From Flavisolibacter ginsenosidimutans (GTDB taxonomy: Bacteria; Bacteroidota; Bacteroidia; Chitinophagales; Chitinophagaceae): a stretch of 64,000 nucleotides of DNA. Made by a program: the position numbers and the translations under genes. Below the pieces are notes generated by a model that made no database searches, had not been told where the DNA came from, and worked only from the letters and a program-made list of their open reading frames with translations. The stretch lies in the NCBI RefSeq assembly GCF_007970805.1, contig NZ_CP042433.1:1178001-1242000 (forward strand), read 5' to 3'. Below are positions 7,332 to 28,695 of this stretch, in pieces; position 1 is the first letter of the stretch; each line of letters starts with the position of its first letter.

Positions 7332-8182
7332 TATTCAAATAATTGTATGATTGAATCAAAGATTTTTTCCTGTATGTCGCTTCCTTCTTTCCCTTTCCAA
7401 TCGATTGTTGTAACAGCTTTATCTGCATTTATAATTTTAACCTGACCTAAAATGTCTTCTTTGATCATGTTAAATGTTTCTCTACTTAATTCTTCGCCTT
7501 TGATTTGTGAGATCCTTTCTTGAAATCGTTGAGCAAGGTGTTCAAATAAATAAAAGCCATAGAAGCTGCATAGCACATCTATGAGTTTGTTGCCATCTAT
7601 CAACTCTTTCATATTCGATTCAAGTTCATTTGCTGTTTTCGCTTCGTCAGCAATCATTTCCACGACTTGACAGCTAGCCATATTCGCCGCAACATCATCC
7701 ATACCCGAACTGGAGTCTGAGAAGTACATCAATAAATAATCAATAATTTCCTCAACTGACTTGCCTTTGATATTCTCAAAGCCAATGGACTTTAATGCTT
7801 TCTCTAATCCGCCATTATAAACTGTTGTGACGAACCTATAAATACGCCCAGAAGCTCTTAAACCAGCTCTTCCCAGGGATGTTGACTTTCCAGATGTTAC
7901 AGACTTTCGCCCTCCTCCAGTTTTAATCAAATTTTTCAAAGCTGACTTGTAATGGGACGTTCTTCTGGCAGAAAGCTTTGCCTGCTGTCTGGAAATATTT
8001 TCTAGAGCTTTTATATTTCCTTCTGATGGAGAGTCCCTTTGATTTTCCTCAGCCTTTTCAGCCTGTTTTTCTAATTCTTTTTCTTTCTCAACCGTATTTA
8101 CAATTGCTGTTATTGCATTACTAAGGTTAGGCCAATTGGGTTCACCGGTAACTCCTGGAATAAGTCTCTGTGTAGTACCCAT
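7331..8182 (-). CDS. qatB: QatB, Qat defence component of unknown biochemical role
   Basis: This 283-residue soluble protein sits between QatA and QatC with one-base TAATG overlaps on both sides. Its N-terminal ~90 residues are charged and probably helical or coiled coil (a run of Lys/Glu between residues 35 and 75). Next comes a Gly/Ser-rich stretch with GGGRKSVTSGKS, then a helical C-terminal half. I see no catalytic motif. The name is assigned from position and size in a clear qatABCD order, and from the general look of the family, so it is less certain than its neighbours. Confidence 0.8.
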   Translation of the reverse strand: MGTTQRLIPGVTGEPNWPNLSNAITAIVNTVEKEKELEKQAEKAEENQRDSPSEGNIKALENISRQQAKLSARRTSHYKSALKNLIKTGGGRKSVTSGKSTSLGRAGLRASGRIYRFVTTVYNGGLEKALKSIGFENIKGKSVEEIIDYLLMYFSDSSSGMDDVAANMASCQVVEMIADEAKTANELESNMKELIDGNKLIDVLCSFYGFYLFEHLAQRFQERISQIKGEELSRETFNMIKEDILGQVKIINADKAVTTIDWKGKEGSDIQEKIFDSIIQLFE

Positions 8183-10360: not shown

Positions 10361-12376
10361 TTAGGTTTGCATATAAATCACCTCACAATTCTTGCAACTC
10401 CTCCTCTCAGGATAATACTCTGCCGGATCATACTTACCATCCCGTGGTTCAAAAATGTCCAGTCCTCTTCCTAGTTGAATTCGCCAGCCATTGTTAGCTA
10501 AAATATTGCGATCGTGAAGGTTCTGATACTCGTAAGTAAGCTTAACGCCCAAATCAGCAACGGCAGGTATCAATTCTTGAAAAGATAATTCACTATCCGG
10601 CATGCGGTCATTCACATTCCATGTAATCACATGAAGCTTTACTTCATCTTCCGGCGCTTTATTCTGTGCTAACATCACGCAGAATTCCAAAAGGTTTTTG
10701 AATTGGTATGGCAGCCTGATATATGGGTCAGTTAAGGTAATTTCCGTTGCACCTTTCAGGTAGTCAGCAAACAAGCGTTTATAGGATATTCCGGTCTGGT
10801 TGTCTCTTATTGAAATGTGCTTGGGTTGGAGAGCGATAGCTGGTTCTACTTCATGGCCGTTCGTTGCGGTTGATTGTTCCGCCGGCGCCGTTGCGTCAAG
10901 AACCTCTTCACCAAACAGGTTTATTTTTTCGAGTGTTTCAACGCCAAACTCTTTATCTGTAGTTGAAATTTTGTATTTGAATTCAGCGGGATGATCTTTA
11001 AACGTTTCATCAATAATATAGAGTTGGTCCTTTACTCGCTTTCTGCCTTCAATCGCAAAATCCAAAATCTCTTTGGCTTCTTCAATTGTCAGTTCCTGGT
11101 GTGGATAAAGCAACTTAACAAATCCTGAGAAGGTCTTGCGAATTGCCATTTTATCACGGGCCGTTAAAGAGCCGTCTAATTCAAAATATTGATCCAGCTT
11201 TCCTGTATAATCGTACTTACGTAACGACCTCAAAATCTCGGCTAAGTAGTCAACAATAAAACCATATCCTGAACTAAAAACAGCCTCTTTTAAAATCTTA
11301 ACTTCCCAACCTGGAGAGTAAAAATGCATTCGGTCAAGAAATGCCCCTTTTATGTAAGCTCCGGGAATGGATTCAAACAAGTGCGAGTGCTTGAGCATAT
11401 ACGGAACCGTATGCTTTGTATTGCCAACGAAAGCCATGGAAGCTGTTGCTTGATAAGTATCTTTCCCCCGGTTAAAGGATTGGTTAGCCATGTAGTTCTG
11501 CATAATCTTCACCAGGTCGCCATCCGCTCTTTTGCTTCCTACTTCCTGCTCAAATTCATCCAGCGCCACCACGTCCCAATAACCTACCAAGCCTATTTTA
11601 TCGCCATTATTGTTGACGAATAATCGGGCTTTGGACACATCACCGCCCGACACTAAAACACCATGTGGTGAAAGCTCTGAAAAGATGTGTGATTTACCTG
11701 TTCCTTTTGGTCCGAGTTCAATGAAATTATAGTTGTTTTCTACATGCGTTACCAACCGCGAAATTTGAATGAGCTTTCCACGCTTTGTAAAGTATTCGGG
11801 GTTCAAGCCAATAGAAAACAACAATACATCCAACCATTCTTCCAATGTGAATGCTTTTCTTGCTTCGATAAATTCATCCAAGAAAACATTAGATACCTGG
11901 ATAGGCTTTAAATCGTTGATCTCCCAACGAACATTCGCTTCGGTTGAATGATTGTAACCAACCGAAAGAATACTCCACACACCGCCGCCGCTTAACAGCT
12001 TTGGATTTTCTTTTACAATCCGGTCAGAAACCGGTACATCTTTTACACCCAGGTTGGCAAAGTCAGCTTCGTATTGATTTGCTTTATCGTTGAGCGAGAC
12101 ATTTACTTTATCAATGATTTTATAAGTGCCACTTTCCCGTATTTTAGACTTAACCACTTCAGCATCGCTTCTATGCACATAGTTCTCAGTTAGTATTTTC
12201 TTTACCCGCTCAACACCCTCTTCAATCACCTGAGGATCTTCTACGGCGCAGTACTGGCCCAAGAGGTATTCCAATACATAGGTTGGCACTACTGCATTGC
12301 CCTTTACTCTTGAAGTAAGATCCTTCCGGACCACTTTGCCTTCAAAATGTTTGATGATTTTATGTTGCAAGTCCAT
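10361..12376 (-). CDS. brxL: BrxL, Lon-like BREX AAA+ protein
   Basis: This 671-residue protein is the BrxL component of type 1 BREX. It has a Walker A GPKGTGKS at residues 222-229 and a Walker B VALDEFE about 55 residues later, followed by a C-terminal Lon-protease-like half. BrxL proteins of the family form ring-shaped AAA+ assemblies that bind DNA and are needed for phage restriction. It starts 2 bp after the pglZ stop, so the two are translationally linked. Its position at the end of the six-gene set matches the canonical type 1 order. A four-Cys zinc-like pair near the very C-terminus (CKNC) is visible. The length is normal for the family. Confidence 0.95.
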   Translation of the reverse strand: MDLQHKIIKHFEGKVVRKDLTSRVKGNAVVPTYVLEYLLGQYCAVEDPQVIEEGVERVKKILTENYVHRSDAEVVKSKIRESGTYKIIDKVNVSLNDKANQYEADFANLGVKDVPVSDRIVKENPKLLSGGGVWSILSVGYNHSTEANVRWEINDLKPIQVSNVFLDEFIEARKAFTLEEWLDVLLFSIGLNPEYFTKRGKLIQISRLVTHVENNYNFIELGPKGTGKSHIFSELSPHGVLVSGGDVSKARLFVNNNGDKIGLVGYWDVVALDEFEQEVGSKRADGDLVKIMQNYMANQSFNRGKDTYQATASMAFVGNTKHTVPYMLKHSHLFESIPGAYIKGAFLDRMHFYSPGWEVKILKEAVFSSGYGFIVDYLAEILRSLRKYDYTGKLDQYFELDGSLTARDKMAIRKTFSGFVKLLYPHQELTIEEAKEILDFAIEGRKRVKDQLYIIDETFKDHPAEFKYKISTTDKEFGVETLEKINLFGEEVLDATAPAEQSTATNGHEVEPAIALQPKHISIRDNQTGISYKRLFADYLKGATEITLTDPYIRLPYQFKNLLEFCVMLAQNKAPEDEVKLHVITWNVNDRMPDSELSFQELIPAVADLGVKLTYEYQNLHDRNILANNGWRIQLGRGLDIFEPRDGKYDPAEYYPERRSCKNCEVIYMQT

Positions 12377-14925: not shown

Positions 14926-17900
14926 TTATTTTATAGGTGCCACCACGCCTTTAAACATCTCGTAATTTTTGGTAACGCCATCGTCCAAATCAAATTCTAT
15001 TTGCCGGGTCGCTACATCTTTCAACAGCAAGTCGTATTCGTTGCATTCAATCAAATCCTTTCTTAAGGTATCCAATGTTCTTTGCTCAGTTCTGGATAGA
15101 GCGGTGAGATTACGCTCCATCCGGTCTATCTCCTGTTGCAGGTATTGAATGTGTTTGATTAAATATTTGTCCCTTAATTTTTCAGCGGTAAAGCGGTTCA
15201 TGCGGTGCATATACACCAGGGCTTGGAAAGCTCCCTTCTTGCTGCTGAACAGCCAGTAAATAGGCTTTTTGCTATAGGTACGAACATGGTAGGCCCAAAA
15301 CTTTTTTACCAGGTAGTCGTCCAAATCGGCGTTAAGGCTTTCCTGTATAAAGTTGATGTTTTGCGTGAGGGTTTCTTCACCCCAAATCATCCGCAGAAAC
15401 TCCCGAACCTTATTGGCTGCATCATCAGGAAAATTGCCTTTGCTGCCCATGAGGGGAATGATGCCGTCTTCATCAATTGAGAATGTATGTGCTTCAGTTG
15501 TTGAAGGTGAGGTATAAGAGTAAGGTTTCAGTTCTTCTTCGTTTGGAGATGGATGCGCAATTTGCAAGCCCAATTTATCTAAACGATAGCGGCCCATGAA
15601 GCAGCCAATTGCATAAGAAATGAATTGCTGGATAACAACGTCTTTTTTGATAGGCAGCAATTGACTCTCGTAAGGCGGCACCAACTTTTTCAAATCTTCA
15701 TAGTCTAGTTCTTCTTGTAGGATAGTAGTGTCTTCTAAAGCAACGTCAGGCTGCAATTCATCTTCCAAACCGTAAATGTTGATAAAGGTGCGGTTGAGTT
15801 CTTCTTCATTTTTGTGAAGTTGAAAAAACTGTCGGCTTGACTGCTGAAGCCATTGTAAATAGCTTTGTTCAAGATTTGTTTGGCAGTTAACTAATGGATT
15901 AAGTTGAAAATTCCACGAGATCTCCCTACTGTTCCAGTCTTGTTTAGATATTTCAACTGAGCTTATAGATAAGACATTTATTTCCTGCAGTAAGCTTTTG
16001 CGGAGTGGAAGTTTATTCAAGTCTTCAACAAGTATGTTTACTGTTGGATTGATATTTTCTAAAATAAACAAAGCCACTTTAGAATTTAAGAATGCCAGGA
16101 TGAAAGAAGTATCTATTTGACTGTCTATGCACATGAAATTTCCAGCCTGGTCATTAATAAAACCTTGCGGATAATATCGCAACGAAACTCTACTTATAGT
16201 CAAAGACGTATAACTAATATTTTCCTTTAAGTTGTATTCTATGTTTTGAGGTCTCGACAGAAGCTTGCCCTTATCATTCTTAAGATTTTTAATTTCGTAC
16301 CCATTATTCTCCCAATTAATAACGTATTCATGATTACCGTACCATCTTCTAAATTCCCCACCCTTATTGTAAGCAAACCATTTAGGAGTGTTTGTTTTGC
16401 TTAGGAGGTTAAACTTTGAGGAGTTTATTTCTTGCCATCTCCTTAAAAATCTTTCATTGTCACTTGTACCAATTCCTCGTCTGAAGCGTCCTATTGTCGC
16501 AATAGTTAACTCTTCGAACATTTTTATTACGTGAACTGGTAAACCTGCAGATATTTGAAATTTAGGAATAAGTAAGAAGGAATTTTGAGGTTTCGACAAT
16601 GGTATACGATTAAGAAACCGTTCTCTCAATTCTGACACCGAAAAGACTTTTGAGGTCTGACCAAAATCGAACAATTTGAAATATAATCCTTGGGCTAGTT
16701 TATTTGGATTGTTTTGTAATATAAATGCAGCTGAACCGAAATCAGAACCGAATACACCTCTCCCAAACTGGATTAGTGATTTTATTGATAAATTTTCTAA
16801 AAGCCATTTCCGAAATTGAAAAAATCCGTCAATAAACATCCAAGATTGTAGAGTAATCATACCTATGTATCCATATTTGATTACCCTATCATGTGCGACC
16901 TCAACGAAAGCACTAAGTATATCTTCTTTACTTGAAGGATAAACTTGCATCAAATAATTGCTCAACTTACCATTCATGTTTGCAGATGTCATATAAGGTG
17001 GATTAGTTACTACCGATTGGTAAGTATTAGTAATAACCTCCAAAACATTCAGGTAAGGTTTTAAGTTGGTAAATACAGACTGTTCCAAAATATCCAAGTC
17101 GGTTCGTCCTTTCCAGGCATTGTACTTTTCTAAAATAAAGCTTCTGCATTCGTCGCTCCAGTCAAATTGCATAATGGAGCCAAGGTTCTGTGCACTCAAC
17201 ATTAGGTGCAGCGCCTTTTGTAAGGGCTCGCTGTATTTGGCACCTTCGTCGCCTAAAAAAAGATGGATGTCTTCTTTTGTAAAATGCACCGGAGCTGGCA
17301 TGTGGTAAATGTGCGGCAGCAGGTCGATCTTCAATACATCGGGGTGGTACTGCGCTGCTTTTATTAGCACGGCAAACTGCGCAAGTTGTGCCGCCCGCAA
17401 ATCAATATCCAGGCCCCATAAGTTTTTTTGCAGAATGCTTTCAACCGCTTCACCTGCCGGGTAATATTCTTCTACATACATTTTGTACAAAAGGTCAAAG
17501 CCTTCCACCAAAATATGTCCGCTGCCCACAGCAGGGTCTAGCAGCTTTAGCTCGGCCACTTCGCTTATGATGGATTCAGTCGCTTCATTTCCATCAGCGG
17601 CTTCCACTAAATACTCCATTTCACCCTTTATTGGTGATTGCGGACGCAGATCCAACCAAATCTTTCCAACCGTGTTCTGCACCATGTATTTCACAATCCA
17701 GTTCGGTGTAAAAATTTGCGTGGCGGCAGGAATGTCGGCTGCTTCTGCTTTTTTGCCGTCCTTGAACTTCTTAAAAACCGCATCCTTTTTTTCACTGATG
17801 TAAAACTGGTAGAGCCAGCCAATCAACTCGACCTGCTTGTAATCTTCTTCGGTTATGTAACCGCCGTTATTCAGCAGGTCTAAAAAACCGCCAGCCGATA

Positions 17901-18456
17901 AAATATCATCGGGCAGCAGAAGTTCGGTGTAATCGTCAATGGCACCAAACACCCGTTTCATTACCTGGTGCGAATGGCAATAGCCGATTAATAAAATACC
18001 AAAGGCCGTCCGCTCTTTCTCGTAATCGGTCAACACTTTTTTAAGCCGCCCGGCTTCAGCAGGCGTTAGAAACTCGTAGCTGCCTGCTCTTGCCCGCTTT
18101 AGCAATTTGGGTGTTTGCTCTTCAAGGCTCACCGGTTCCAGCAAGGGTAGGTCGTAATCGTTCTTGCCTAAAATCTGCATTGCCATCAGCCGGTTGAACC
18201 AGATGTATGCGGCCCGTTCGGCAATCTCCGTAAAACCTTCGTCGTTGAAACACTCTTTCAATTTTTGCCATTGCTTTGGCACTTCTTCATCATCAAAAAC
18301 ATCTTCCCTGAAAATATAACCACCAGCAACCGGCTGCGGTTCGTGTGTGATGGTTCCATTCGGGTGAAAGCCCCAGTAAGAGAGCTTGCGGCTAACGCCA
18401 TCTATCAGCAGTGTACGGGCTTTTTGCCCAAAAGTTTTAAGGTTGGCAGTATTCAT
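14926..18456 (-). CDS. pglX: PglX, BREX adenine-specific DNA methyltransferase
   Basis: This 1,176-residue protein has the amino-methyltransferase motifs in the expected order: SAM-binding motif I DPAVGSGH at residues 307-314 and catalytic NPPY at residues 485-488. PglX methylates adenine in a non-palindromic BREX site to mark host DNA as self. The region after the catalytic domain (roughly 600-900) is probably the target recognition part, and the C-terminal ~300 residues are helical. The gene starts 3 bp after the brxC stop. It appears intact, with no internal frameshift and the usual family length of about 1,200 residues. Confidence 0.95.
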   Translation of the reverse strand: MNTANLKTFGQKARTLLIDGVSRKLSYWGFHPNGTITHEPQPVAGGYIFREDVFDDEEVPKQWQKLKECFNDEGFTEIAERAAYIWFNRLMAMQILGKNDYDLPLLEPVSLEEQTPKLLKRARAGSYEFLTPAEAGRLKKVLTDYEKERTAFGILLIGYCHSHQVMKRVFGAIDDYTELLLPDDILSAGGFLDLLNNGGYITEEDYKQVELIGWLYQFYISEKKDAVFKKFKDGKKAEAADIPAATQIFTPNWIVKYMVQNTVGKIWLDLRPQSPIKGEMEYLVEAADGNEATESIISEVAELKLLDPAVGSGHILVEGFDLLYKMYVEEYYPAGEAVESILQKNLWGLDIDLRAAQLAQFAVLIKAAQYHPDVLKIDLLPHIYHMPAPVHFTKEDIHLFLGDEGAKYSEPLQKALHLMLSAQNLGSIMQFDWSDECRSFILEKYNAWKGRTDLDILEQSVFTNLKPYLNVLEVITNTYQSVVTNPPYMTSANMNGKLSNYLMQVYPSSKEDILSAFVEVAHDRVIKYGYIGMITLQSWMFIDGFFQFRKWLLENLSIKSLIQFGRGVFGSDFGSAAFILQNNPNKLAQGLYFKLFDFGQTSKVFSVSELRERFLNRIPLSKPQNSFLLIPKFQISAGLPVHVIKMFEELTIATIGRFRRGIGTSDNERFLRRWQEINSSKFNLLSKTNTPKWFAYNKGGEFRRWYGNHEYVINWENNGYEIKNLKNDKGKLLSRPQNIEYNLKENISYTSLTISRVSLRYYPQGFINDQAGNFMCIDSQIDTSFILAFLNSKVALFILENINPTVNILVEDLNKLPLRKSLLQEINVLSISSVEISKQDWNSREISWNFQLNPLVNCQTNLEQSYLQWLQQSSRQFFQLHKNEEELNRTFINIYGLEDELQPDVALEDTTILQEELDYEDLKKLVPPYESQLLPIKKDVVIQQFISYAIGCFMGRYRLDKLGLQIAHPSPNEEELKPYSYTSPSTTEAHTFSIDEDGIIPLMGSKGNFPDDAANKVREFLRMIWGEETLTQNINFIQESLNADLDDYLVKKFWAYHVRTYSKKPIYWLFSSKKGAFQALVYMHRMNRFTAEKLRDKYLIKHIQYLQQEIDRMERNLTALSRTEQRTLDTLRKDLIECNEYDLLLKDVATRQIEFDLDDGVTKNYEMFKGVVAPIK

Positions 18457-18459
18457 GGG

Positions 18460-21400
18460 TTACTCGATGATGATGGTTTTGTTTTGAGAGATGAGCTTTT
18501 GCATTTCGGTGGATACCTGCTTCACGAAAGCATCCAGTTCTTCCTGCGTACTGATGGTGCTTCGGATTTTGGACACTTTATACCGCTGGGTTTTTTTCTC
18601 CCGCCCGTCGGAGCCACCGTCAGCCACTTCGGCCACTTTTCTATATATAGTTTCCAGGCCTTCGGTTTTGAAATTATCAGCCTTTGAGGTTTCCAATTGA
18701 AGCTGGGTAATATCGTTCAACGTTTTGAGGCGCTGAAGGAACTGGTCTTTGTTGATGTAAGCGTTGTAATCAACTTTCAACTCTGCCGCCTTCGTTTCCA
18801 AATCGGCAAACACTTCTTCGTAAACAGTGACCACTTTTGTCCGTAAGCCATCAATGTATCCTGACAATGCGGCTTTTAACTGTTCGTACTGCTTTACGGC
18901 CACCCTAAACTCGCTTGCAGGTTCCGCATTCAACAGGAACTGCGCCAGCTTTGAAGCTACATCTTTATCGCTATCGTTCAGAGAAGCAAAGTTTGCTTCG
19001 TTACCCAGGTAAAAGTTTTTGATTTCATCATACTTGGCAATGTGCGACGTAATGAAATCTTTTGTCTTTTCCGTTTTGTCACGCAGGGCTTTTGCCGCTG
19101 CCTGTCCATCTATCAATTCCGTAAACAATCGTTTGGGGTCACGAATGTCTATCCATGCTGTTATCGTTTCTGTAATCTCCTTGAAGGTTTTGCCAAAGGG
19201 ATAGAGCTTGTCGTATTTATCCTGATAAGAGGCATAATCGTCTTTGAGCGCAGCCAACTGTTGTGTCATCTGTTCCGCCAATTTGTAGCCATCCGTAGGG
19301 AAAGAGGAAGTGGACTTATTGAAGATGGCGCCGAAAGCTTTTGTGGCATCATCAACCAGCTTAGCATCAATGCCCCCCAATGATTTTACCACGCAGCCGG
19401 GTCGCTCCGGCGTGGTGATGGCTTTTTCAATAAAAGCGGCCGCAGGAAAACGTGGCGTGTTCCGGTATTCCAGGTCACGCAACTTGCGGGCATTCAGCAT
19501 TACCACCATGTCAATGACGGCAACGTCCTTCCATCCAAAGGGAATTTTGGTAAAGTTGCGAACTAGTTCTTCCATTGTTGCTTCGTTGCCATTTGCGAGG
19601 ATAAACTCTTCCACCTTGGCTTCGCCGTTGGGCAGTTCACCGTCCATTGTTATCTGGATGGATTGTGCCACTCTTGTACGTAAGTCAGCTGCTGTTCGGG
19701 CATAGCCGGCCGCATATTTTATAAACTTGTACACTCGTTCAAGGTGGTAGCGTAAGGTATTGGCATATCGCTCCCTCGTTTGCGAACCGCTTACCGCACT
19801 GGCTTCTAAAATCTGTTGAAGGGAGATAAAACGAGCTTCCAAAAGTTTCTCCGTAAACTTCAGAAGTAGCTTGCTCTTTAATTCATCGTTGCGGCTTTTA
19901 AAATTTTGCAAGGTTTTTTCCCGTTCGCCGGTAGCCGCTGACGTGTTGTTTTTAAAGTAGATGATGTTCTTAGTGTACCATTCCAGGTCGGCACTAAAAG
20001 CAGTGTCTTTGGTAAACCATTCGTTCAGGCAGATGTAGAGGTCATTGGCAATGGTGTTCATCGCTTTTTCTTCAAGCGGCTGCTTGTCGAAGAGCACAAT
20101 GTTTACTTTAATATCACCGTTGCGGTAAATCTCCTTGTCATCAATGGCATAACCAATGCGAATGTCATTCTCTTCTAATGCGAACTTGCTTTCTATGCGC
20201 AGAAGAGGGTTGATTAAATCATTAACAATTGAAAGACGGTCATCAAAGGTTGGCTTTGTATTTTTAATCAGGTTGGTCACCTGAATTTCATCTTCCGAAT
20301 AGAAATAAAACTTACCCGTTTCCTCACGAATAATGCTCTCTTCGACCAATCGTTCCAACACATCCTTAATTTGCTTCTGAAGCTGCGCCTTGTTTTGATC
20401 CAGTTCGGTCATCAATAAAACCGTAAGGTTATCTATGTTGGGTGGGAAGGTTAAGAGCACATTGTCTTCCAGGTTAGAGATCATGAATAAGGTGCCTACC
20501 ACCCGTTGTGCAAACTCGTTGCCTCGCACATAGGTTAAGGATAAAGCTCTATCTATAACTCGCCGACCTATGTGGGTTAGGTTGTTCCGAAACAGCTTGT
20601 TGAAAAAATGGTCAAAGGCGATGAATAATCCTACCTTCTCGTCTGCATGTTCTTTCACCGTGTAGTGTGTTACGCCAATCACCGAACGTTCGTTGTTTTT
20701 TACTTCGGTAATTACATAGCCCAAATGCTGAAAAGCGGAAAACACATCGGCAATCAGGCGAAATTGGTATGGAACGAAAGGATAAGAAAGAATAAAATCG
20801 TCTGCATCGTCATAGCCTTTATACAAATCATGCGATAGCTTAAACTGGTGTTGTATGAAGTCCTTCTTTTCCGCATACAAATCATTCAACGCCTTCGTGC
20901 CTGTCGCATTTTTTTCCAGCACCCTTCTTTTCGTAATGTAAGAGGCATCGTTGCTTTCCAAAGAAATACGGGTATCGAAACGTCCCAGGATCTTTCCAAA
21001 TTCATCTGACTTGCCTGCATGATGATCAAAACGTTCTACCACATCTTCCAAGGTTTGTTGCGCGGTCAACGCAATCCACACCTGGTTTTTTAGGCCATGA
21101 CTTACTTCTTCAATAATGCTCTGAAGGTTCAGCAGAATGTCTTTGTTATGCCCGATGTATTGCGAGATTTCATCCACCAGGAATACCAGACGAAAATTAT
21201 CTCCTTTTTCCGCCACGTACTCTTTTAGCTCCGGAATTAATTTAGACGTGATGCCTATGTGATAACTGGATGGATTGGTAAGTGTGCTATGAAGTGCTTT
21301 TACATCCAGCTCTGGTAAAAGTTTTTTGGCAATATCCAGAATAGTTTCGAGTTTGTAACCAGCTAAGTCCGCGGCTTCTGCCTCCCAATTGTGCTGCAAA

Positions 21401-21993
21401 CTATCAGAGATGGCTTGTTTAAAAGCCCCAAACTTACCCGCCTTTTCCAAAGGTTTTTCTAAAAGAATGGCCAATGGAATGTTGACAGCGTTATAGCCCC
21501 TGAATTGGTTGAACATGTTCAGGAAAATACGGGTAAGCTTTTCGCCGGAATGGTCGTCGGTAACAGCTTCCACATTGAACAGAATGTCCTTGCAATGCAA
21601 GTCAGCAATGCGCTTCTGCAAAGCCTTGAATTTAGACTCTGTTATTTCCTCGTTATTACCTGGCTTAAACGGGTCATATCCCTTTACAGCGGCCAGAATC
21701 TTTTCAAACGCTTTTGCAGAAAAATGCGGGTTTAGGCAATAGTGCATGAATTTGATAAAATGCGACTTACCAGAACCGTAGTAGCCATTGATCCAAATCC
21801 CGGCTTTGCCTTCTCTTTTATTTGCAACGGCATTCAAAAACCGCCATGATTTGTCTAATAAATCATCGGTGAATACATACTCACCTATCTCAGCTTCAAT
21901 GGTAGCTGTGTCGTCGGTGCTTACAACAACGGCCGGATTAATGTTTCGGTCAATGCGTTTTTCAAAAAGTTCACGTATCAGCATGTTACTCAT
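18460..21993 (-). CDS. brxC: BrxC, large BREX P-loop ATPase
   Basis: The 1,177-residue protein has a Walker A GYYGSGKS at residues 70-77 and a Walker B-like FLVDEISQ near residue 270, as in BrxC/PglY of type 1 BREX. The C-terminal part is long and helical. BrxC is essential for BREX function and is believed to form the ATP-dependent core with PglX, PglZ and BrxB. The start overlaps the brxB end by 8 bp; an ATG three codons later (21984) is an alternative start that would leave no real difference in the domain. Gene length matches the family. Confidence 0.95.
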   Translation of the reverse strand: MSNMLIRELFEKRIDRNINPAVVVSTDDTATIEAEIGEYVFTDDLLDKSWRFLNAVANKREGKAGIWINGYYGSGKSHFIKFMHYCLNPHFSAKAFEKILAAVKGYDPFKPGNNEEITESKFKALQKRIADLHCKDILFNVEAVTDDHSGEKLTRIFLNMFNQFRGYNAVNIPLAILLEKPLEKAGKFGAFKQAISDSLQHNWEAEAADLAGYKLETILDIAKKLLPELDVKALHSTLTNPSSYHIGITSKLIPELKEYVAEKGDNFRLVFLVDEISQYIGHNKDILLNLQSIIEEVSHGLKNQVWIALTAQQTLEDVVERFDHHAGKSDEFGKILGRFDTRISLESNDASYITKRRVLEKNATGTKALNDLYAEKKDFIQHQFKLSHDLYKGYDDADDFILSYPFVPYQFRLIADVFSAFQHLGYVITEVKNNERSVIGVTHYTVKEHADEKVGLFIAFDHFFNKLFRNNLTHIGRRVIDRALSLTYVRGNEFAQRVVGTLFMISNLEDNVLLTFPPNIDNLTVLLMTELDQNKAQLQKQIKDVLERLVEESIIREETGKFYFYSEDEIQVTNLIKNTKPTFDDRLSIVNDLINPLLRIESKFALEENDIRIGYAIDDKEIYRNGDIKVNIVLFDKQPLEEKAMNTIANDLYICLNEWFTKDTAFSADLEWYTKNIIYFKNNTSAATGEREKTLQNFKSRNDELKSKLLLKFTEKLLEARFISLQQILEASAVSGSQTRERYANTLRYHLERVYKFIKYAAGYARTAADLRTRVAQSIQITMDGELPNGEAKVEEFILANGNEATMEELVRNFTKIPFGWKDVAVIDMVVMLNARKLRDLEYRNTPRFPAAAFIEKAITTPERPGCVVKSLGGIDAKLVDDATKAFGAIFNKSTSSFPTDGYKLAEQMTQQLAALKDDYASYQDKYDKLYPFGKTFKEITETITAWIDIRDPKRLFTELIDGQAAAKALRDKTEKTKDFITSHIAKYDEIKNFYLGNEANFASLNDSDKDVASKLAQFLLNAEPASEFRVAVKQYEQLKAALSGYIDGLRTKVVTVYEEVFADLETKAAELKVDYNAYINKDQFLQRLKTLNDITQLQLETSKADNFKTEGLETIYRKVAEVADGGSDGREKKTQRYKVSKIRSTISTQEELDAFVKQVSTEMQKLISQNKTIIIE

Positions 21994-22576
21994 TAATAAG
22001 TTTTATAGCACGGTAAAGATTTTCGTCGTTTAAGACTTTAAAGAGGTTGTAATTTTTCTTGGCGTCTCCTGGGTAGAATAAAATGATTTTGTATTCTTTG
22101 ATATAGCCTTCAAATAGGTTCATGAATTTGCTGGCCCGCAGGTAAGGATAGATCTGGCCGAAGCCATACACAAATACGTAGCTTTTCTTCAGATCACTTA
22201 TCTCCGAGAGATGGCTTTGTATCCGGTAATTCAGGTACTCGCAAAACTTTCGATCATTTGCCTTTTGCCGGATGGTTGTTTGAACCGTTGTGTGATTTTT
22301 TGCTTCCTCTGATAAGATAAATTCCAGCCAATTAGAGGTTCCCCATTTTTGCGTCTTTAGGTACTGGCAAAACTCATCGAAAATATTCAGTGCTAATACA
22401 TCAACGAAGTCGGTAGGTCGCACCAGCCTTTCTTTCATCGTTTGTATTTCCTGTCTAATGTGGTATTCCATCTCCGGTTCATACAAATACATATAGGCAG
22501 GAAAAAACAAGTACCCGGTGGCAGGGTCCTGAAATGATTTATCACATAAGAGATCGTATAGTTCTTTAATTGTCAT
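21986..22576 (-). CDS. brxB: BrxB, DUF1788 BREX protein
   Basis: This 196-residue soluble protein matches BrxB in size and position, and in its DUF1788-like features: YVFVYGFGQIYPYLRAS followed by a C-terminal FYPG segment. Its biochemical role is not defined, but BrxB is required for type 1 BREX activity. It overlaps brxA by 11 bp upstream and brxC by 8 bp downstream, so the three are translationally coupled. Assignment is by family resemblance plus gene order. Confidence 0.9.
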   Translation of the reverse strand: MTIKELYDLLCDKSFQDPATGYLFFPAYMYLYEPEMEYHIRQEIQTMKERLVRPTDFVDVLALNIFDEFCQYLKTQKWGTSNWLEFILSEEAKNHTTVQTTIRQKANDRKFCEYLNYRIQSHLSEISDLKKSYVFVYGFGQIYPYLRASKFMNLFEGYIKEYKIILFYPGDAKKNYNLFKVLNDENLYRAIKLINE

Positions 22577-23301: not shown

Positions 23302-24816
23302 TTACTCTTCACCTAAATTACTCACCTCACCATTTAGCGTCAGCGTGTCAGCAAAGGCAGCTTCGCTTATAATTTCAGCAGGGAAAGCCTTCGTCCCGGT
23401 CTTTATTCCCAATGTTTTGATGGACTCTGCCTGATTAATAAGGTTGCCATGCCCTTTATACAGTTGCCCATAGGCATCTTTCCAGCTATCGTTCGCTTTG
23501 TTCAAGCTATCGCCTACCTTTTTCATATTGTCCACAAAACCTACCAGCTTGTCGTAAAGACGCCCTGCCTTTTCTGCAATCAACTTTGCATTTTTATTAA
23601 TGGCGTCCCGTTGCCAAAGATTGCTGATCAGCTTAATGGTAGTAATAAGGTTAGACGGACTGATAAGTACAATTCCCTTATTGTAAGCATAGCGCCATAA
23701 ATCCTGATCCAGCTGCATAGCCAATATATAGGCTGGTTCAACAGGCATGAACATGATAACTGTATCAAGCGTATTAGGAATTCCGGTATATTTTTTCCCG
23801 CTTAATCCGTCAATATGCCCCTTAATGGATAACAACAAACTTTTAGAAAAGGCTTCTTGCTCCGTCGCAACGTTAGTGGAACAATAGCCAGTGAAATGGC
23901 TCAGTGAAACTTTGGAATCAATAATTACACATCGGTTGTCAGGACAGTTGACAATAAAATCTGGCTGTATGCGAATGCCGTCTTCGTCCTTTGTGCTGTA
24001 TTGTTTGAAATAATGAATATTGTGTTGCAGGCCGCAGTGTTCCAAAATACTTTCTAAAATTTCTTCGCCCCAGTTGCCTTGCTGCTTCGACTGAAAAGTT
24101 AGAGCCTTAGTAAGGTTATTCGCTTGCTCCGACAACATCTTGTGGTTGTTCACCATTTCCTGAATGACACCTTTCAATGTATTACGTTCGGCTGCTTCTA
24201 TGCTGTGTTTCTCAGAAAACTCCTTTTTGAAATTGGCTATATCCGCCTTAAACGGCTCAAGCAAAAGCTTTAGGCTTACTTCCTGCTGTGAACCGAAAAC
24301 TTTTGACTTCTCGTCCAAGATCTTGTGAGCTAAATTGGAAAATTCTTTTTCAAACCTGCGCCCGATGTCTTCAAGCGATTTTGCTTGTTCGTCCAATTGC
24401 CGTGTTTTATATACAACCTCAGCTTCAAGTTTGGCAATTCGGTTTTGCGCAATTGATATTTCGGCCTGTGCTGTTTCCAGCTTTACTTTAAGGTTGTTGA
24501 TTTCGACGTTTCTGTCATTGACGTCGAGCATTAGGCAACCATTTTCCGTATGAGCTTTTGTATAATCAGCCCTTACCTGGATCAACTCTTCTCCTTTGGA
24601 GTGGAGCAGTGAATAGGCTCTCTCTATTTCAGTTCGAGAGCTAACCAAGGCACTGTCAACAACAGCCTTCTGCGTGATTAACTCGTTTAATTGCTTCTTC
24701 GCTGCATCCAATTCAGGAACAGACACAAAATTTTTCTCAAATAAAAGTTTGCGAATAACCCAAGCTATAGTACCACCGGCTAACAAACAAAAGATTGGAA
24801 GAAGGAAACTTTGCAT
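23302..24816 (-). CDS. rmuC: RmuC-family protein inside the BREX locus
   Basis: From the ATG at 24816 the protein has 504 residues. An N-terminal membrane helix (LLPIFCLLAGGTIAWVI) is followed by a long coiled coil (about 30-200) and the RmuC domain (about 200-430). The latter holds the nuclease-like core QGNWGEEILESILE, then PDFIVNCPDNRCVIIDSKVS, in which D-x(n)-DSK resembles the PD-(D/E)XK fold. RmuC proteins limit recombination at inverted repeats. An upstream in-frame codon at 24852 would add 12 residues, but the start used here gives a cleaner membrane anchor. It lies 58 bp after the WYL regulator gene and 115 bp before brxA on the same strand. RmuC is not a core BREX gene, so a role in this island is inferred. 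Confidence 0.88.
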   Translation of the reverse strand: MQSFLLPIFCLLAGGTIAWVIRKLLFEKNFVSVPELDAAKKQLNELITQKAVVDSALVSSRTEIERAYSLLHSKGEELIQVRADYTKAHTENGCLMLDVNDRNVEINNLKVKLETAQAEISIAQNRIAKLEAEVVYKTRQLDEQAKSLEDIGRRFEKEFSNLAHKILDEKSKVFGSQQEVSLKLLLEPFKADIANFKKEFSEKHSIEAAERNTLKGVIQEMVNNHKMLSEQANNLTKALTFQSKQQGNWGEEILESILEHCGLQHNIHYFKQYSTKDEDGIRIQPDFIVNCPDNRCVIIDSKVSLSHFTGYCSTNVATEQEAFSKSLLLSIKGHIDGLSGKKYTGIPNTLDTVIMFMPVEPAYILAMQLDQDLWRYAYNKGIVLISPSNLITTIKLISNLWQRDAINKNAKLIAEKAGRLYDKLVGFVDNMKKVGDSLNKANDSWKDAYGQLYKGHGNLINQAESIKTLGIKTGTKAFPAEIISEAAFADTLTLNGEVSNLGEE

Positions 24817-24874
24817 AAAAAATATTTTGGTTGATACAAAAGTTGGAAGCACTTGTGCAAGCTATTTGCATAGC

Positions 24875-25876
24875 TTATTCATAAATCAAATTGCCAGTTT
24901 GAAAGATCAATTTTATCTGCTCACGTAGAGATTCTGGCTCCAATACTTCTATATCGGCCCCATAGCTTAAGAGGACTGATCGCAACTCATAGTTATTAAT
25001 CAGTTTGAGCTTCACCAAAATACTTCCATCGCTAAAAGGCCCTTCTGTTTCTTGGGTAAAGTGAATGGGCTTGGATGTGATATAAGGGGCTTGTGCTTTT
25101 TTCACTTTTAAAACGATATTACTCACTGCTTCGTCTAATGGAAACGTGACGCCAATTAAATTATTGAAGTAGGTTGCAGGATCAAATAAGTCATTTTCTG
25201 TGAAGGCTCCCTTTGTAGGCTTTACACTTTTCATTCTATCCAATGCAAGATTGCAAAGCGTATTATGTTTATCGTCTCTTGCAATCAAAAACCAGCGGTT
25301 ACGATATTCTTTTAAGAGGTAGGGATGGACTAGTTGGTCGTAAGGTTCTTTTCCGAAAGGTTGATACGTAATTTTTAGAACGATCTTTTCTTTCACACCT
25401 GTGAAAAGGTCATCCATGAATTCTAAACCCGTTGCTGTTGTTTGCCTCTCAAATTGAATAATAGTTCTATCGGCTATGGGATTTTTTGCGATTGTATTTT
25501 CCAACTTAGCAATAACGGAGACCAAATCTTGCGCAATGGAAGCACTCCCTATTTGCTTGATTAATTCTACGGCATCCTTCAAAAGCACAATTTCTTCGTC
25601 AGTTAGAGGAAGTGTTTTTATGGAGTAGTTAGCATCGTCATAGAAATAGTAAACTTTTGCGCCTTGTTTGGCCTTTTTGATAGGAGCAGCCTTTTCATTG
25701 ATCAGGTAATCAAGCGCATATTGAACCGTTCTTTTGCTTACTGTGTCGTCATAGCGGTCGAGTAACTTTTGATTGACAGCCTTCAATAAAGCATCAATAC
25801 TCCATTTCTTGCCCTTTTGACGGAAGCATTCGTCAATAATTTCAATACGGTGGTAGAAGTCTTTAACCTTCGGCAT
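24875..25876 (-). CDS. brxR: WYL-domain transcriptional regulator, BrxR-like
   Basis: This 333-residue protein has an N-terminal helix-turn-helix (about 1-75), a WYL domain (about 140-220, including LKEYRNRWFLIARDD) and a C-terminal WCX-like dimerisation segment ending SLREQIKLIF. WYL regulators next to BREX loci (BrxR) bind an upstream operator and repress the operon; that is family knowledge. Here it leads the run brxR-rmuC-brxABC-pglX-pglZ-brxL. A 30-bp inverted repeat lies just upstream of its start. The name depends on locus position, since WYL proteins are common in defence islands. Confidence 0.82.
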   Translation of the reverse strand: MPKVKDFYHRIEIIDECFRQKGKKWSIDALLKAVNQKLLDRYDDTVSKRTVQYALDYLINEKAAPIKKAKQGAKVYYFYDDANYSIKTLPLTDEEIVLLKDAVELIKQIGSASIAQDLVSVIAKLENTIAKNPIADRTIIQFERQTTATGLEFMDDLFTGVKEKIVLKITYQPFGKEPYDQLVHPYLLKEYRNRWFLIARDDKHNTLCNLALDRMKSVKPTKGAFTENDLFDPATYFNNLIGVTFPLDEAVSNIVLKVKKAQAPYITSKPIHFTQETEGPFSDGSILVKLKLINNYELRSVLLSYGADIEVLEPESLREQIKLIFQTGNLIYE

Positions 25877-25981: not shown

Positions 25982-26410
25982 TTAAGTTAAAAAGTAGTAA
26001 AAGCCTCTTTCACCCTTTCGCTTTTCTCGTTTGATGCGTTCTGCTTTTAATGCCATGTCAAGAAATGCCGAGAAGTATTGTGCCTGGTTCCAATGGTTAC
26101 GAAGATGCTCTTCTCTTTTCGCCAGCACTTCGATGATTTCCGGGCTACGCAAAGGCTTTCCAGCTTGTTCGAGCACAAAAACTATTTTTTTAACCCACGT
26201 CCATTCTTTGCGGTAGCCATCATCTGGATTTTCATGGGTCTGTATCTTTTCTTTAAGCGCCTGGACCTCTTTTGTGAGTAACAATATATCATTATAGGCT
26301 TGTTTTAAGTCTTCACGTAGCAAGTGGATGTCACGTTCCTTGCCTTTGAGCATATCGGCTGCTTCTTTTCGGGTATAAATCTTTTCTGTAGAACGGATGC
26401 TTTCTCTCAC
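25982..26410 (-). CDS. Coiled-coil plus winged-helix-like hypothetical protein
   Basis: The 142-residue protein starts with GTG at 26410. It begins with a short segment that may be DNA-binding (YTRKEAADMLKGKERDI), then a coiled coil (about 25-60), and ends in a compact domain (about 68-142) with the look of a winged helix: PLRSPEIIEVLAKRE, then a basic GERGFYYF wing. It is divergent from the recombinase operon and separated from it by 11-bp tandem repeats. A role as a regulator of the island or of recombinase expression is plausible but inferred. Confidence 0.65.
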   Translation of the reverse strand: MRESIRSTEKIYTRKEAADMLKGKERDIHLLREDLKQAYNDILLLTKEVQALKEKIQTHENPDDGYRKEWTWVKKIVFVLEQAGKPLRSPEIIEVLAKREEHLRNHWNQAQYFSAFLDMALKAERIKREKRKGERGFYYFLT

Positions 26411-26647: not shown

Positions 26648-26992
26648 ATGAAAAAGCTACCCAAATCTGCTGCTCAAAAAGAACACTCCCTATCTGTAAT
26701 TCCCAAAACCCGACCGAGCTATGAAGACGTTGAGCTTATTAACCTGAAGAAAGTACCCTTAACGCCGGAAGTGCTGAGATCCTTTGAAGGCTTTGAACAC
26801 ACGTCTGACGAGGAGGCGGAAAACATTTGCCACACCTCCTCCCAATTTGCCTACATCCTGCTGGACTTCCTCTCCCGTAAAAACAACATTTTCATTGATA
26901 ATCAACAAGTTGTATCTTTGAAAGAGAACGAAACGATGGTTATAAGCATAAATGAATCACAATCTGAACCCCTTAAAAACAAAGCCGCATGA
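26648..26992 (+). CDS. Small hypothetical protein coupled to the recombinase
   Basis: The likely ATG at 26648 gives 114 residues; an in-frame start at 26555 would add a hydrophobic 31-residue leader and overlap the repeat array, so I prefer the shorter form. The protein is acidic in the middle and has no motif I recognise. Its stop overlaps the recombinase start (ATGA), so the two are probably translated together. Small partners of large serine recombinases can be directionality factors, but nothing in the sequence proves this. Confidence 0.55.
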   Translation: MKKLPKSAAQKEHSLSVIPKTRPSYEDVELINLKKVPLTPEVLRSFEGFEHTSDEEAENICHTSSQFAYILLDFLSRKNNIFIDNQQVVSLKENETMVISINESQSEPLKNKAA

Positions 26993-28695
26993 GTCTTGAC
27001 GCGTTTAAACAATTTGGACACCAGTCTTCTCTTCGGGTTGTTACGAACAGCATGAAGAACGCAGTGGTCTATACCCGCGTTTCATCAAAAGAGCAAGCTG
27101 ATACCAACCTTTCCTTGGACTTTCAGCGGCGGGTGATTGAGGAGTATGCCGCAAAGCAAGGTCTATCCATACTTAGCTACTTTGGCGGCACTTATGAATC
27201 TGCTAAAACAGACGGGCGAAAGGAGTTTCTGCGGATGCTAGAATTTATCAAAAAGCATAAAGGAAAGGTTTCTCATATCCTGGTCTATACCCTTGACCGC
27301 TTTTCCCGAACGGGTGGTGGCGCAATTAAGCTTGCCCAAGACCTGCGCGAAAAGTACGGCGTGAGTGTTTTTGCCGTTACGCAGCCAACAGATACCTCCA
27401 ACCCAAGCGGCGTACTACATCAAAACATTCAACTTCTATTCTCTGAGTTTGACAACCAGCTCCGCAAGCAACGGGCGGTTGCCGGCATGAAAGAGAAATT
27501 TCAAAAAGGAGAATGGGTGACCCGTGTACCGCAAGGCTATGATATTATTAAAATCAATGGAGTTCGGAAGATCGTAGTGAACGAAGAAGGAAAGAAGTTG
27601 CGTAAGGCATTTCATTGGCGGGCCCGTGGAATGAAAAACGAAGAGATCATTCAGCGGCTCTGTGCGATGGGTGTAAAGATGTATAAGCAGCAGTTGACCA
27701 AGCTTTTTAAAAAGCCTTTTTATTGCGGCATCATCAACCATGCAATTCTTGATGGAAAGGTTGTAGAAGGCAACCATGAAGCACTTATCTCCAAAGAGAT
27801 CTTTTTGCAGGTGAACGGCCTTCACCGTGCAGCGCACAACTACGGCGTACCGCACAAAAAAGAAGTGGAGGCTGTACCGCTGAAAGTCTTCATTAAATGT
27901 GACGACTGCGGAGAGCTATTTACAGGCTACGTGGTAAAAGCAAAAGGACTGTGGTATTACAAGTGCAGAACCAAGGGATGCGGCTGCAACCGGAGTGCCA
28001 AAAAAATGCATGAGGAATTTGAAACCTTGCTTGCATCTTACAGCGTAGAGCCAAAAATGATTAAGCCCATTGCTTACCAAATAGAATACTGGTTTGAGCA
28101 GCTCAATAAGGAATCCATCGAACAAGAAAAGACCTTGAAAGAAAAACTGATCGAGGTGACCAAGAAGATTGACACCATTGAAGAAAAGCACTATGTCTTA
28201 GAAGAAATGAACAAGGAAAGCTTTGAGAAGTTCTATGTCCGTTACAACAAAGAACGAGAAGAAATCAAGGAGGTACTGGAAAAGCTAACCCCGCAGATTT
28301 CGAACCTCAAAAAGAGTATTGAAGAAGGTGTTACCTTTTCGACCAAACTCGCTACAGTATGGACTTCCAGCACGGTTGGTAAGAAAGAAAAGCTACAAAA
28401 ACTGCTCTTTCCCGAGGGAATCATCTATTCAAAGAAAAATGCGGCATTTCGAACCGAAAAAGTAAACTCGTTTTTTGGGCTTGTTGCCCAAGCAGCAAGG
28501 GATTCATGCAAAAATAAAATGGGGACAAACAAAGCTTTGCCTTGTTTGTCCCCATCAGCGGAGAGGGAGGGATTCGAACCCTCGGTACAGTTGCCCGTAC
28601 AACGGTTTTCGAGACCGTCCCATTCGACCACTCTGGCACCTCTCCTACCTTTCTCAATAATAGAAAAATACGGTGGATGGAAGGCAAAGAAATGA
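26989..28695 (+). CDS. Large serine recombinase (integrase of the defence island)
   Basis: This protein of up to 568 residues has a resolvase-type catalytic domain with YTRVSSKEQ (nucleophilic serine), GRKEFLRML and YTLDRFSRTGGG. A recombinase domain follows (about 165-280), then a zinc ribbon (CDDCGELF and CRTKGCGC) and a long coiled coil. An alternative ATG at 27052 starts directly before the catalytic domain. Large serine recombinases integrate and excise mobile elements by recombining att sites. The last ~60 codons run antisense through the terminator and the whole tRNA-Ser gene, so this C-terminus is created by the attachment junction. It is upstream-coupled to the 114-residue ORF. Confidence 0.92.
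   Translation: MSLDAFKQFGHQSSLRVVTNSMKNAVVYTRVSSKEQADTNLSLDFQRRVIEEYAAKQGLSILSYFGGTYESAKTDGRKEFLRMLEFIKKHKGKVSHILVYTLDRFSRTGGGAIKLAQDLREKYGVSVFAVTQPTDTSNPSGVLHQNIQLLFSEFDNQLRKQRAVAGMKEKFQKGEWVTRVPQGYDIIKINGVRKIVVNEEGKKLRKAFHWRARGMKNEEIIQRLCAMGVKMYKQQLTKLFKKPFYCGIINHAILDGKVVEGNHEALISKEIFLQVNGLHRAAHNYGVPHKKEVEAVPLKVFIKCDDCGELFTGYVVKAKGLWYYKCRTKGCGCNRSAKKMHEEFETLLASYSVEPKMIKPIAYQIEYWFEQLNKESIEQEKTLKEKLIEVTKKIDTIEEKHYVLEEMNKESFEKFYVRYNKEREEIKEVLEKLTPQISNLKKSIEEGVTFSTKLATVWTSSTVGKKEKLQKLLFPEGIIYSKKNAAFRTEKVNSFFGLVAQAARDSCKNKMGTNKALPCLSPSAEREGFEPSVQLPVQRFSRPSHSTTLAPLLPFSIIEKYGGWKAKK
28521..28553 (-). terminator. Rho-independent terminator of tRNA-Ser
   Basis: A perfect 12-bp stem (GGGGACAAACAA with TTGTTTGTCCCC) and 9-nt loop lie six bases downstream of the tRNA 3' end on the minus strand, followed by the T-rich ATTTTATTTTTG. 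It lies inside the recombinase reading frame on the other strand. Confidence 0.85.
28559..28645 (-). tRNA. tRNA-Ser, anticodon CGA
   Basis: The minus strand folds into a class II tRNA of 87 nt. The acceptor arm pairs GGAGAGG with CCTCTCC, with discriminator G; CCA is not encoded. The anticodon loop CTCGAAA reads CGA for serine, and the T arm is GAGGG-TTCGAAT-CCCTC. A long variable arm, typical for serine, lies between. The 3' end faces the recombinase gene, the usual arrangement for an element integrated at a tRNA 3' end. Confidence 0.95.

What the first reader, a model, noticed from the sequence alone, without database searches (positions are those of the whole stretch)
23302..24816. RmuC protein between BREX regulator and brxA
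An intact RmuC with N-terminal anchor and PD-(D/E)XK-like nuclease core sits between the WYL regulator and brxA in the same direction. RmuC is not a core component of type 1 BREX. Its domain could act on phage DNA or recombination intermediates, so it may be an accessory nuclease.
Basis: partly seen in the sequence, partly recalled or inferred. Interest (0 to 1): 0.6.

Follow-up and report, generated by a model that had tools for sequence, protein, structure and literature searches.

The report
Swappable nuclease gene heading BREX operon
A bacterial anti-phage operon of the BREX type carries an extra gene for a probable membrane-anchored DNA-cutting protein, RmuC, right behind its regulator, and relatives carry the same regulator-plus-RmuC pair in front of BREX or of a quite different restriction system, so it looks like a plug-in weapon rather than a stray housekeeping gene.

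Summary
In detail: on the minus strand an intact rmuC (24816..23302) lies between a WYL regulator and brxA of a complete type 1 BREX operon. 'Accessory nuclease' gains support from surveys but is untested biochemically. RmuC was found in 0 of 96 other BREX loci. Yet the window's WYL, probed in 394 genomes of the host family, led to a second RmuC-BREX in a congener and to three type I restriction-modification operons with the same WYL-RmuC head: 5 of the 8 closest WYLs have RmuC next door, 0 of 49 more distant WYL loci. RmuC appears exchanged beneath an 89%-identical WYL. In four other Bacteroidota BREX loci the slot behind WYL holds DUF2130, also coiled-coil with a PD-(D/E)XK-like motif. Shield (ShdA, Pseudomonas) is the closest known analogue; the window's RmuC groups with Bacteroidota RmuCs, not with ShdA-like rows. 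Auxiliary BREX nucleases are a published class (PMC12839542); its main text names neither RmuC nor DUF2130. New variant of a known kind.

The parts
23302..24816 (-). rmuC: N-terminal membrane helix (predicted), coiled coil, PD-(D/E)XK (RmuC) domain; the longest ORF starts at 24852 (GTG)
24875..25876 (-). WYL/WCX regulator, BrxR-like
   Evidence: Pfam WYL 2.3e-12 and WCX 4.6e-14; same head gene in L250, L054, L251, L255
22566..23186 (-). brxA
   Evidence: Pfam BrxA 1.8e-27
21986..22576 (-). brxB
   Evidence: Pfam BrxB 9.8e-22
18460..21993 (-). brxC
   Evidence: PADLOC BrxC 2.4e-232
14926..18456 (-). pglX methyltransferase
   Evidence: PADLOC PglX E = 0, 1117.9 bits
12379..14916 (-). pglZ
   Evidence: Pfam PglZ 4.3e-42
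10361..12376 (-). brxL with C-terminal phospholipase D-like domain
   Evidence: Pfam BrxL_ATPase 5.6e-122, BrxL_N, MIT_C 9e-37

Best explanation
rmuC here is an accessory, probably membrane-tethered DNA nuclease of the defence operon, under the BrxR-like WYL regulator encoded just upstream. Shown: the gene order, the intact predicted anchor and PD-(D/E)XK motif, the recurrence of WYL-RmuC at the head of two BREX and three type I restriction-modification operons in one bacterial family, and strong divergence of RmuC beneath a conserved regulator, most simply by exchange. Inferred: WYL represses the operon until infection; RmuC, held at the inner membrane, cuts or binds phage DNA or its recombination and replication intermediates there, as is proposed for Shield ShdA, and so backs up the main system (PglZ/BREX or HsdR). 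RmuC is not needed for BREX methylation in this reading.
For: Anatomy. Of 8 WYLs at 50% identity or more to the window's (own one included) 5 have RmuC as the next large gene on the same strand; 0 of the other 49 WYL loci have RmuC within the up to 1.5 kb held. G735 (same genus): WYL, 122 aa, RmuC, weakly VWA-like protein (Pfam 0.022), DUF6642, brxA, brxB, brxC, pglX, pglZ, brxL. G068, G604 and G733: WYL-RmuC ahead of a large fusion protein, HsdM and HsdS, all by Pfam; HsdR is seen in G068. RmuC tree: window, G735-BREX and G068-R-M form one clade (97/96 and 98/95), with G735-BREX sister to G068-R-M (100/99), so the gene crosses system types; the linked state needs 3 changes, forced by well-supported branches (gains and losses cannot be told apart by that count). 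G604 and G733: WYL 89%, HsdM 90%, RmuC only 50% identical, with WYLs sister (100/99) and RmuCs in different subclades. Window vs G735: BrxB 87%, BrxL 88%, RmuC 43%. Window and G735 genomes hold no other RmuC. Slot behind WYL filled by DUF2130 (PF09903, E 1e-63 to 5e-75) in 4 Bacteroidota BREX loci. Published analogue: ShdA, membrane RmuC with in vitro DNase activity and defence, often with WYL genes; [quoted passage not shown]
Against: No RmuC in 96 other BREX loci. 3 of the 8 close WYLs have no RmuC. No assay, no expression data. No word longer than 9 bases is shared by any two of six WYL upstream regions. Structure models are poor (pLDDT 54 and 62), and sequence profiles do not join RmuC with DUF2130 (hhalign probability 1.5%). 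In 19 of 20 other family genomes whose RmuC neighbourhood I read, RmuC is not behind such a WYL and the neighbours look like ordinary chromosome by eye (L071 has a weak WYL match about 1.9 kb downstream). BrxA also differs a lot between window and G735 (49%), and so does the fusion protein between G604 and G733 (27%), so low identity need not mean a swap.
Confidence: 0.6

Rival explanations
1. RmuC in these operons is a host-protection or repair factor: it deals with chromosome breaks or stalled forks caused by the restriction system, as expected from its classical role in recombination, and is kept with the system to offset autoimmunity.
For: The nearest relatives are chromosomal RmuCs; the only functional link for ordinary RmuC is recombination (recalled; PMC10270631 passages, cite the inversion rate of short inverted repeats); it is the only RmuC of the genome.
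Against: RmuC is patchy in the family (23 of 98 genomes, own included, with E < 1e-60) and three of eight congeners searched have no RmuC match, so it is not a needed repair factor; ShdA, of the same architecture, is reported as an effector.
Confidence: 0.2
2. Chance residence: a wandering chromosomal rmuC happened to land in the island and has no part in defence.
For: 0 of 96 other BREX loci have it.
Against: Five loci of five genomes with the gene in the same place behind one group of WYLs, in two system types, and a tree that needs three changes of linkage.
Confidence: 0.08
3. RmuC is part of a separate two-gene system (regulator plus RmuC, a Bacteroidota counterpart of Shield) that merely sits next to BREX or type I R-M and works alone.
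For: ShdA alone defends in Pseudomonas and E. coli (PMC10270631, abstract and passages); the cassette goes with different systems.
Against: WYLs stand ahead of brxA (L090, L092, L100; more distant WYLs) or of R-M genes (L252, L253) without RmuC, so such WYLs serve the main system, and rmuC lies between WYL and that system.
Confidence: 0.12

Closest known systems
Shield (ShdA), Pseudomonas; PMC10270631 (abstract and passages read)
   Same: Membrane helix, coiled coil and RmuC domain; often beside WYL genes; also found inside DISARM operons, and in Pseudomonas type I R-M operons according to PMC11090510 (passage read)
   Different: Reported only from Pseudomonas; the window's RmuC nests among Bacteroidota RmuCs and not with two ShdA-like rows or an R-M-embedded row from a Stutzerimonas genus search; BREX is not among the partners named in the passages read; ShdB was not searched for
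Auxiliary and backup nuclease effectors of BREX; PMC12839542 (passages and section 35 part 1 of 2 read)
   Same: A PD-(D/E)XK-type nuclease gene immediately next to core BREX genes
   Different: The main text holds no 'RmuC' and no 'DUF2130'; membrane anchoring, a WYL-RmuC cassette and its sharing with type I R-M are not in the parts I read; its supplementary tables could not be checked
BrxR-family WYL regulators; PMC9122601 (passages read)
   Same: WYL regulator co-localised with BREX, type IV and type I systems
   Different: 'RmuC' and words beginning 'nuclease' have 0 hits in that text
RTasRmuC of DRT (PADLOC PDLC03812)
   Same: RmuC domain; hit at 4.8e-91
   Different: No reverse transcriptase among the ten window proteins scanned; the model also hits the Stutzerimonas RmuCs L315 and L319 at least as well, so it is not specific

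Membership tests
Type 1 BREX | brxA, brxB, brxC, pglX, pglZ, brxL in order | tested here: met
RmuC (PF02646) | domain over curated cut-off | tested here: met
   312.7 bits, cut-off 26
RmuC (PF02646) | PD-(D/E)XK motif | tested here: met
   PD...D-x-K in 32 of 32 rows, window included; the preceding W-G-E in 31 of 32
Shield (ShdA) | membrane anchor, coiled coil, RmuC domain | tested here: met
   (prediction from sequence)
Shield (ShdA) | belongs to the ShdA clade | tested here: not met
   the ShdA-like rows were named by me from context (orphan RmuC beside a WYL gene, Pfam WYL 1.2e-14 for L315), not by accession
Shield (ShdA) | defence by ShdA alone | not testable with these tools
   needs a phage assay
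DRT with RmuC | reverse transcriptase beside RmuC | tested here: not met
   none among the ten window proteins scanned
BREX auxiliary nuclease (PMC12839542) | nuclease gene adjacent to or inside core BREX genes | tested here: met
   (window)
BREX auxiliary nuclease (PMC12839542) | adds to or backs up phage restriction | not testable with these tools
   none
BrxR-type WYL regulator | represses its own operon | not testable with these tools
   WYL and WCX domains only; no common operator found

The most novel reading that the evidence does not exclude
There is a 'socket' between a WYL regulator and the first core gene of methylation-based defence operons in Bacteroidota, into which coiled-coil PD-(D/E)XK proteins from the chromosomal stock are plugged again and again: RmuC in one family (BREX and type I R-M), DUF2130 in flavobacteria and relatives (BREX). 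Regulator and core genes stay, the nuclease is swapped, and the regulator-nuclease cassette moves between unrelated systems. DUF2130, a family of unknown function, would then be a defence nuclease.
Probability: 0.4. Interest if true: 0.62.

Novelty: new variant of a known kind. Interest (0 to 1): 0.48.

Why it matters
How BREX stops phage DNA replication is still unsettled, and resistance that survives inhibition of PglZ has been reported (as told in PMC12839542, section 35). A defined extra nuclease in a fixed slot gives a direct knockout test. It also extends RmuC-in-defence beyond Pseudomonas, shows the same regulator-nuclease head on BREX and on type I R-M, and gives a first functional lead for DUF2130.

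Tried and rejected
Homology of RmuC and DUF2130 by sequence: hhalign of A3 and A4 gave probability 1.5%, so I claim a shared slot and a similar motif, not common descent. Structure: DUF2130 model pLDDT 62.1, best Foldseek match EcoT38I restriction endonuclease, probability 0.90 but E 8.2e-3 and TM below 0.2; further down come some nucleases and many RNA polymerase subunits; only a hint. RmuC model pLDDT 54.1, matches mostly coiled coils; its strand-helix order fits a PD-(D/E)XK core but proves nothing. Solved-structure search by sequence found coiled-coil type matches for RmuC and nothing of use for DUF2130.

Operator search: no word over 9 bases shared by any two of six WYL upstream regions, and only weak inverted repeats. 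Att repeat for the tRNA-Ser beside the recombinase: none of 14 bases or more elsewhere in the window. Viral contigs: no close relative of the window RmuC or WYL; the RmuC profile found 3 loci, two of them near-identical; no DUF2130. Plasmids: 59 records with RmuC, all under 60% identity; of the four I opened, three (L280, L282, L283) show chromosome-like neighbours and one (L281) carries no annotation.

My DUF2130 profile was built from four sequences and left 10 of 30 Pfam-detected DUF2130 loci unlabelled, so 4 of 96 is a lower bound. The RmuC profile also detects the Stutzerimonas rows; its reach to the second RmuC type of L268-L272 was not checked. Of 34 non-own RmuC matches I fetched 20 neighbourhoods; 14 (two strong, twelve weaker) were not read. 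Neighbour genes there were judged by eye from ORF starts and a few profiles. The five second-type RmuCs are in the first tree and were left out of the second. DUF2130 outside BREX: 30 of 69 listed matches were read with 1.5-kb flanks and none shows WYL or brx genes; but one that was not among the 30 (G568, L351) lies behind a WYL on the same strand with three genes between, beside two genes that look like McrB/McrC by eye, so DUF2130 behind WYL may not be confined to BREX. 'Not in print' rests in an open-licence library only.

Full report
What is there. The gene named in the finding is real and intact, on the minus strand (24816..23302; longest ORF from 24852). It carries a hydrophobic N-terminal segment, a long predicted coiled coil and an RmuC domain (PF02646, 2.7e-93) with the PD...D-S-K motif. 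It sits 58 bp behind a WYL/WCX regulator and 115 bp before brxA in a complete type 1 BREX operon: WYL, rmuC, brxA, brxB, brxC, pglX, pglZ, brxL. Behind brxL follow genes scoring as QatA, QatB (weakly), QatC and QatD. The host is a genome of unnamed family f1; the nearest named BrxC relatives are Bacteroidota. It has no other RmuC match.

Is RmuC a usual BREX partner? No. I gathered 80 BREX loci from named genomes with a BrxC alignment and 16 more from a phylum sample; 95 of the 96 are distinct. None of the 96 holds RmuC; 87 have BrxA and 70 have at least 1.5 kb upstream of it.

Is it then a stray? Also no. I probed 394 genomes of the family with the window's WYL (180 matched at E 1e-3 or better) and looked at the neighbourhoods of the best ones. 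The eight WYLs at 50% identity or more are the window, G735 (70%), G068 (63%), G604 (54%), G176 and G089 (53%), G733 (52%) and G651 (50%). Five of the eight have RmuC as the next large gene on the same strand: the window, G735, G068, G604, G733. Among the 57 WYL loci given, with up to 1.5 kb on each side, those same five have RmuC and the other 52 (3 of the eight and 49 more distant ones) do not. G735, of the same genus, is a second RmuC-BREX: WYL, 122 aa, RmuC, a weakly VWA-like protein, DUF6642, brxA to brxL. The other three are type I restriction-modification operons: WYL, RmuC, a large fusion protein (methyltransferase and/or specificity domains plus HATPase), a protein that starts like a receiver domain by eye but has no family match, HsdM, HsdS; HsdR is seen in G068. 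Small or medium ORFs stand between some of these genes (91 aa before RmuC in G068; 279 aa and 145 aa after it in G604 and G733). G176 and G089 have WYL and HsdM without RmuC beside them; G651 has two large proteins instead.

How did RmuC get there? In a tree of 29 RmuCs and one of 32 with gammaproteobacterial and phage rows, the window, G735 and G068 proteins form one clade (97/96; 98/95), in which the BREX-linked G735 protein is sister to the R-M-linked G068 protein (100/99). The G604 and G733 proteins lie elsewhere, each nearer to RmuCs of other genomes that are not behind this WYL. The linked state needs three changes, which well-supported branches force; the count does not tell gains from losses. 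The WYL tree pairs G604 with G733 (100/99). Pairwise: WYL 89%, HsdM 90%, RmuC only 50%. The simplest reading is that RmuC was exchanged under a conserved regulator. The fusion protein is even more different there (27%). Window against G735: BrxB 87%, BrxL 88%, WYL 70%, BrxC 69%, PglX 60%, BrxA 49%, RmuC 43%. The VWA-like protein and the small gene behind WYL are shared between G735-BREX and G068-R-M (71%; 52% over 91 residues). This looks like a cassette that moves between system types and whose nuclease is replaced.

The same slot elsewhere. In four Bacteroidota BREX loci (L075 Bacteroidia MAG, L076 Wenyingzhuangia marina, L085 Maribacter arcticus, L098 Winogradskyella) the gene behind WYL is DUF2130 (PF09903, 1.1e-63 to 4.9e-75). 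It ends 11 bp before brxA in L085 and overlaps it in L098; it is 186 bp away in L076; in L075 a 217-aa ORF lies between. Their WYLs are only 25-31% identical to the window's. DUF2130 starts with a C-P-x-C pair, and has a long predicted helix and a conserved D...E-S-K motif. Counting the window and G735, 12 BREX loci are headed by a WYL within 3.5 kb on the same strand (10 of 96, plus these two), and 6 of the 12 have RmuC or DUF2130 in the slot; in the other six (L090, L092, L096, L100, L103, L107) WYL is the nearest gene over 100 aa to brxA. In Rufibacter (L074) an McrBC-family gene lies in front of brxA and no WYL was found. DUF2130 matches occur in 65 of 395 phylum genomes; of 30 loci read none has WYL or brx genes within 1.5 kb by my profiles, but in one further genome (G568) DUF2130 lies behind a WYL, with three genes between, outside BREX. 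Profile comparison does not unite RmuC and DUF2130, and the fold evidence is weak, so their likeness may be convergence.

Mechanism. The best model: WYL represses the operon; on infection RmuC, fixed in the inner membrane by its helix, cuts or holds incoming or replicating phage DNA, next to the BREX or R-M machinery that tells self from foreign. Shown here: order, intactness, recurrence, divergence under a conserved regulator. Inferred: repression, nuclease activity, membrane location, role in defence. The closest experimental support is Shield: ShdA is a membrane-bound RmuC protein; ShdA homologues degrade DNA in vitro and ShdA defends; [quoted passage not shown] abstract and passages). PMC11090510 states that Pseudomonas type I R-M systems often contain such a gene (passage); I saw one (HsdR, RmuC, HsdM) in a genome of the Stutzerimonas search (L319). 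A membrane nuclease that cuts phage DNA at injection is known in SNIPE (PMC13190303, abstract); the analogy is mine.

Known or new. PMC12839542 (passages and section 35, part 1 of 2) describes a large set of auxiliary nucleases next to BREX genes, PD-(D/E)XK types most often; its main text has 0 hits for RmuC and DUF2130, and its supplement could not be read. Twelve papers hold both 'RmuC' and 'BREX', eleven of them listed; in the five whose passages I read I saw no report of RmuC in a BREX locus; the rest I know from the listing. DUF2130 occurs in 3 papers, by title none on defence. So the kind is known; the RmuC and DUF2130 variants, and the sharing of one cassette by BREX and type I R-M, I did not find in print.

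Verdict. Observation confirmed; interpretation partly supported and widened. New variant of a known kind; interest 0.48.

Noticed in passing
window 5275-10062 (-): Genes scoring as QatA (1.3e-106), QatB (5.1e-07), QatC (2.4e-94) and QatD (1.7e-64) follow brxL: a Qat system next to BREX.
   Followed up: partly
L054:10718-14307, L251:7479-11193, L255:5572-9116: In the RmuC-linked type I R-M operons a large protein joins methyltransferase and/or specificity domains to a histidine-kinase-like HATPase and is followed by a protein that looks like a receiver by eye (no family match). The fusion is 27-29% identical between the pairs compared although HsdM is 78-90%. An unusual signalling-like part in an R-M operon.
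   Followed up: partly
window 26989-28695 (+) and 28558-28645 (-): A serine recombinase ORF runs into a tRNA-Ser(cga) gene just upstream of the BREX operon, as in an island; no second att copy in the window.
   Followed up: partly
L277:7770-9059, L278:1007-2296: Two contigs of IMG/VR encode an RmuC 38% identical to the window's over the matched part; could be phage recombination or counter-defence.
   Followed up: no
L268-L272: Four congeners (G004, G175, G711, G757) and G089 of another genus carry a second, deeply separate RmuC type (429-578 aa) that the window and G735 genomes lack; three of eight congeners searched have no RmuC match.
   Followed up: partly
L351:236-6114 (-): Outside BREX, a WYL gene, three other genes (310, 674 and 208 aa, not identified) and DUF2130 lie in a row on one strand, opposite two genes that look like McrB/McrC by eye.
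   Followed up: no
window 10361-12376 (-): BrxL carries a C-terminal phospholipase D-like domain (MIT_C, 9e-37), in line with the HKD nuclease of BrxL described in PMC12839542.
   Followed up: no
window 25982-26410 (-): A 142-aa ORF upstream of WYL has no family match in Pfam, PADLOC or NCBIfam.
   Followed up: no
G000:C1:2089670-2090365 (outside the window): The host genome holds a DUF2130 gene elsewhere on the chromosome.
   Followed up: no
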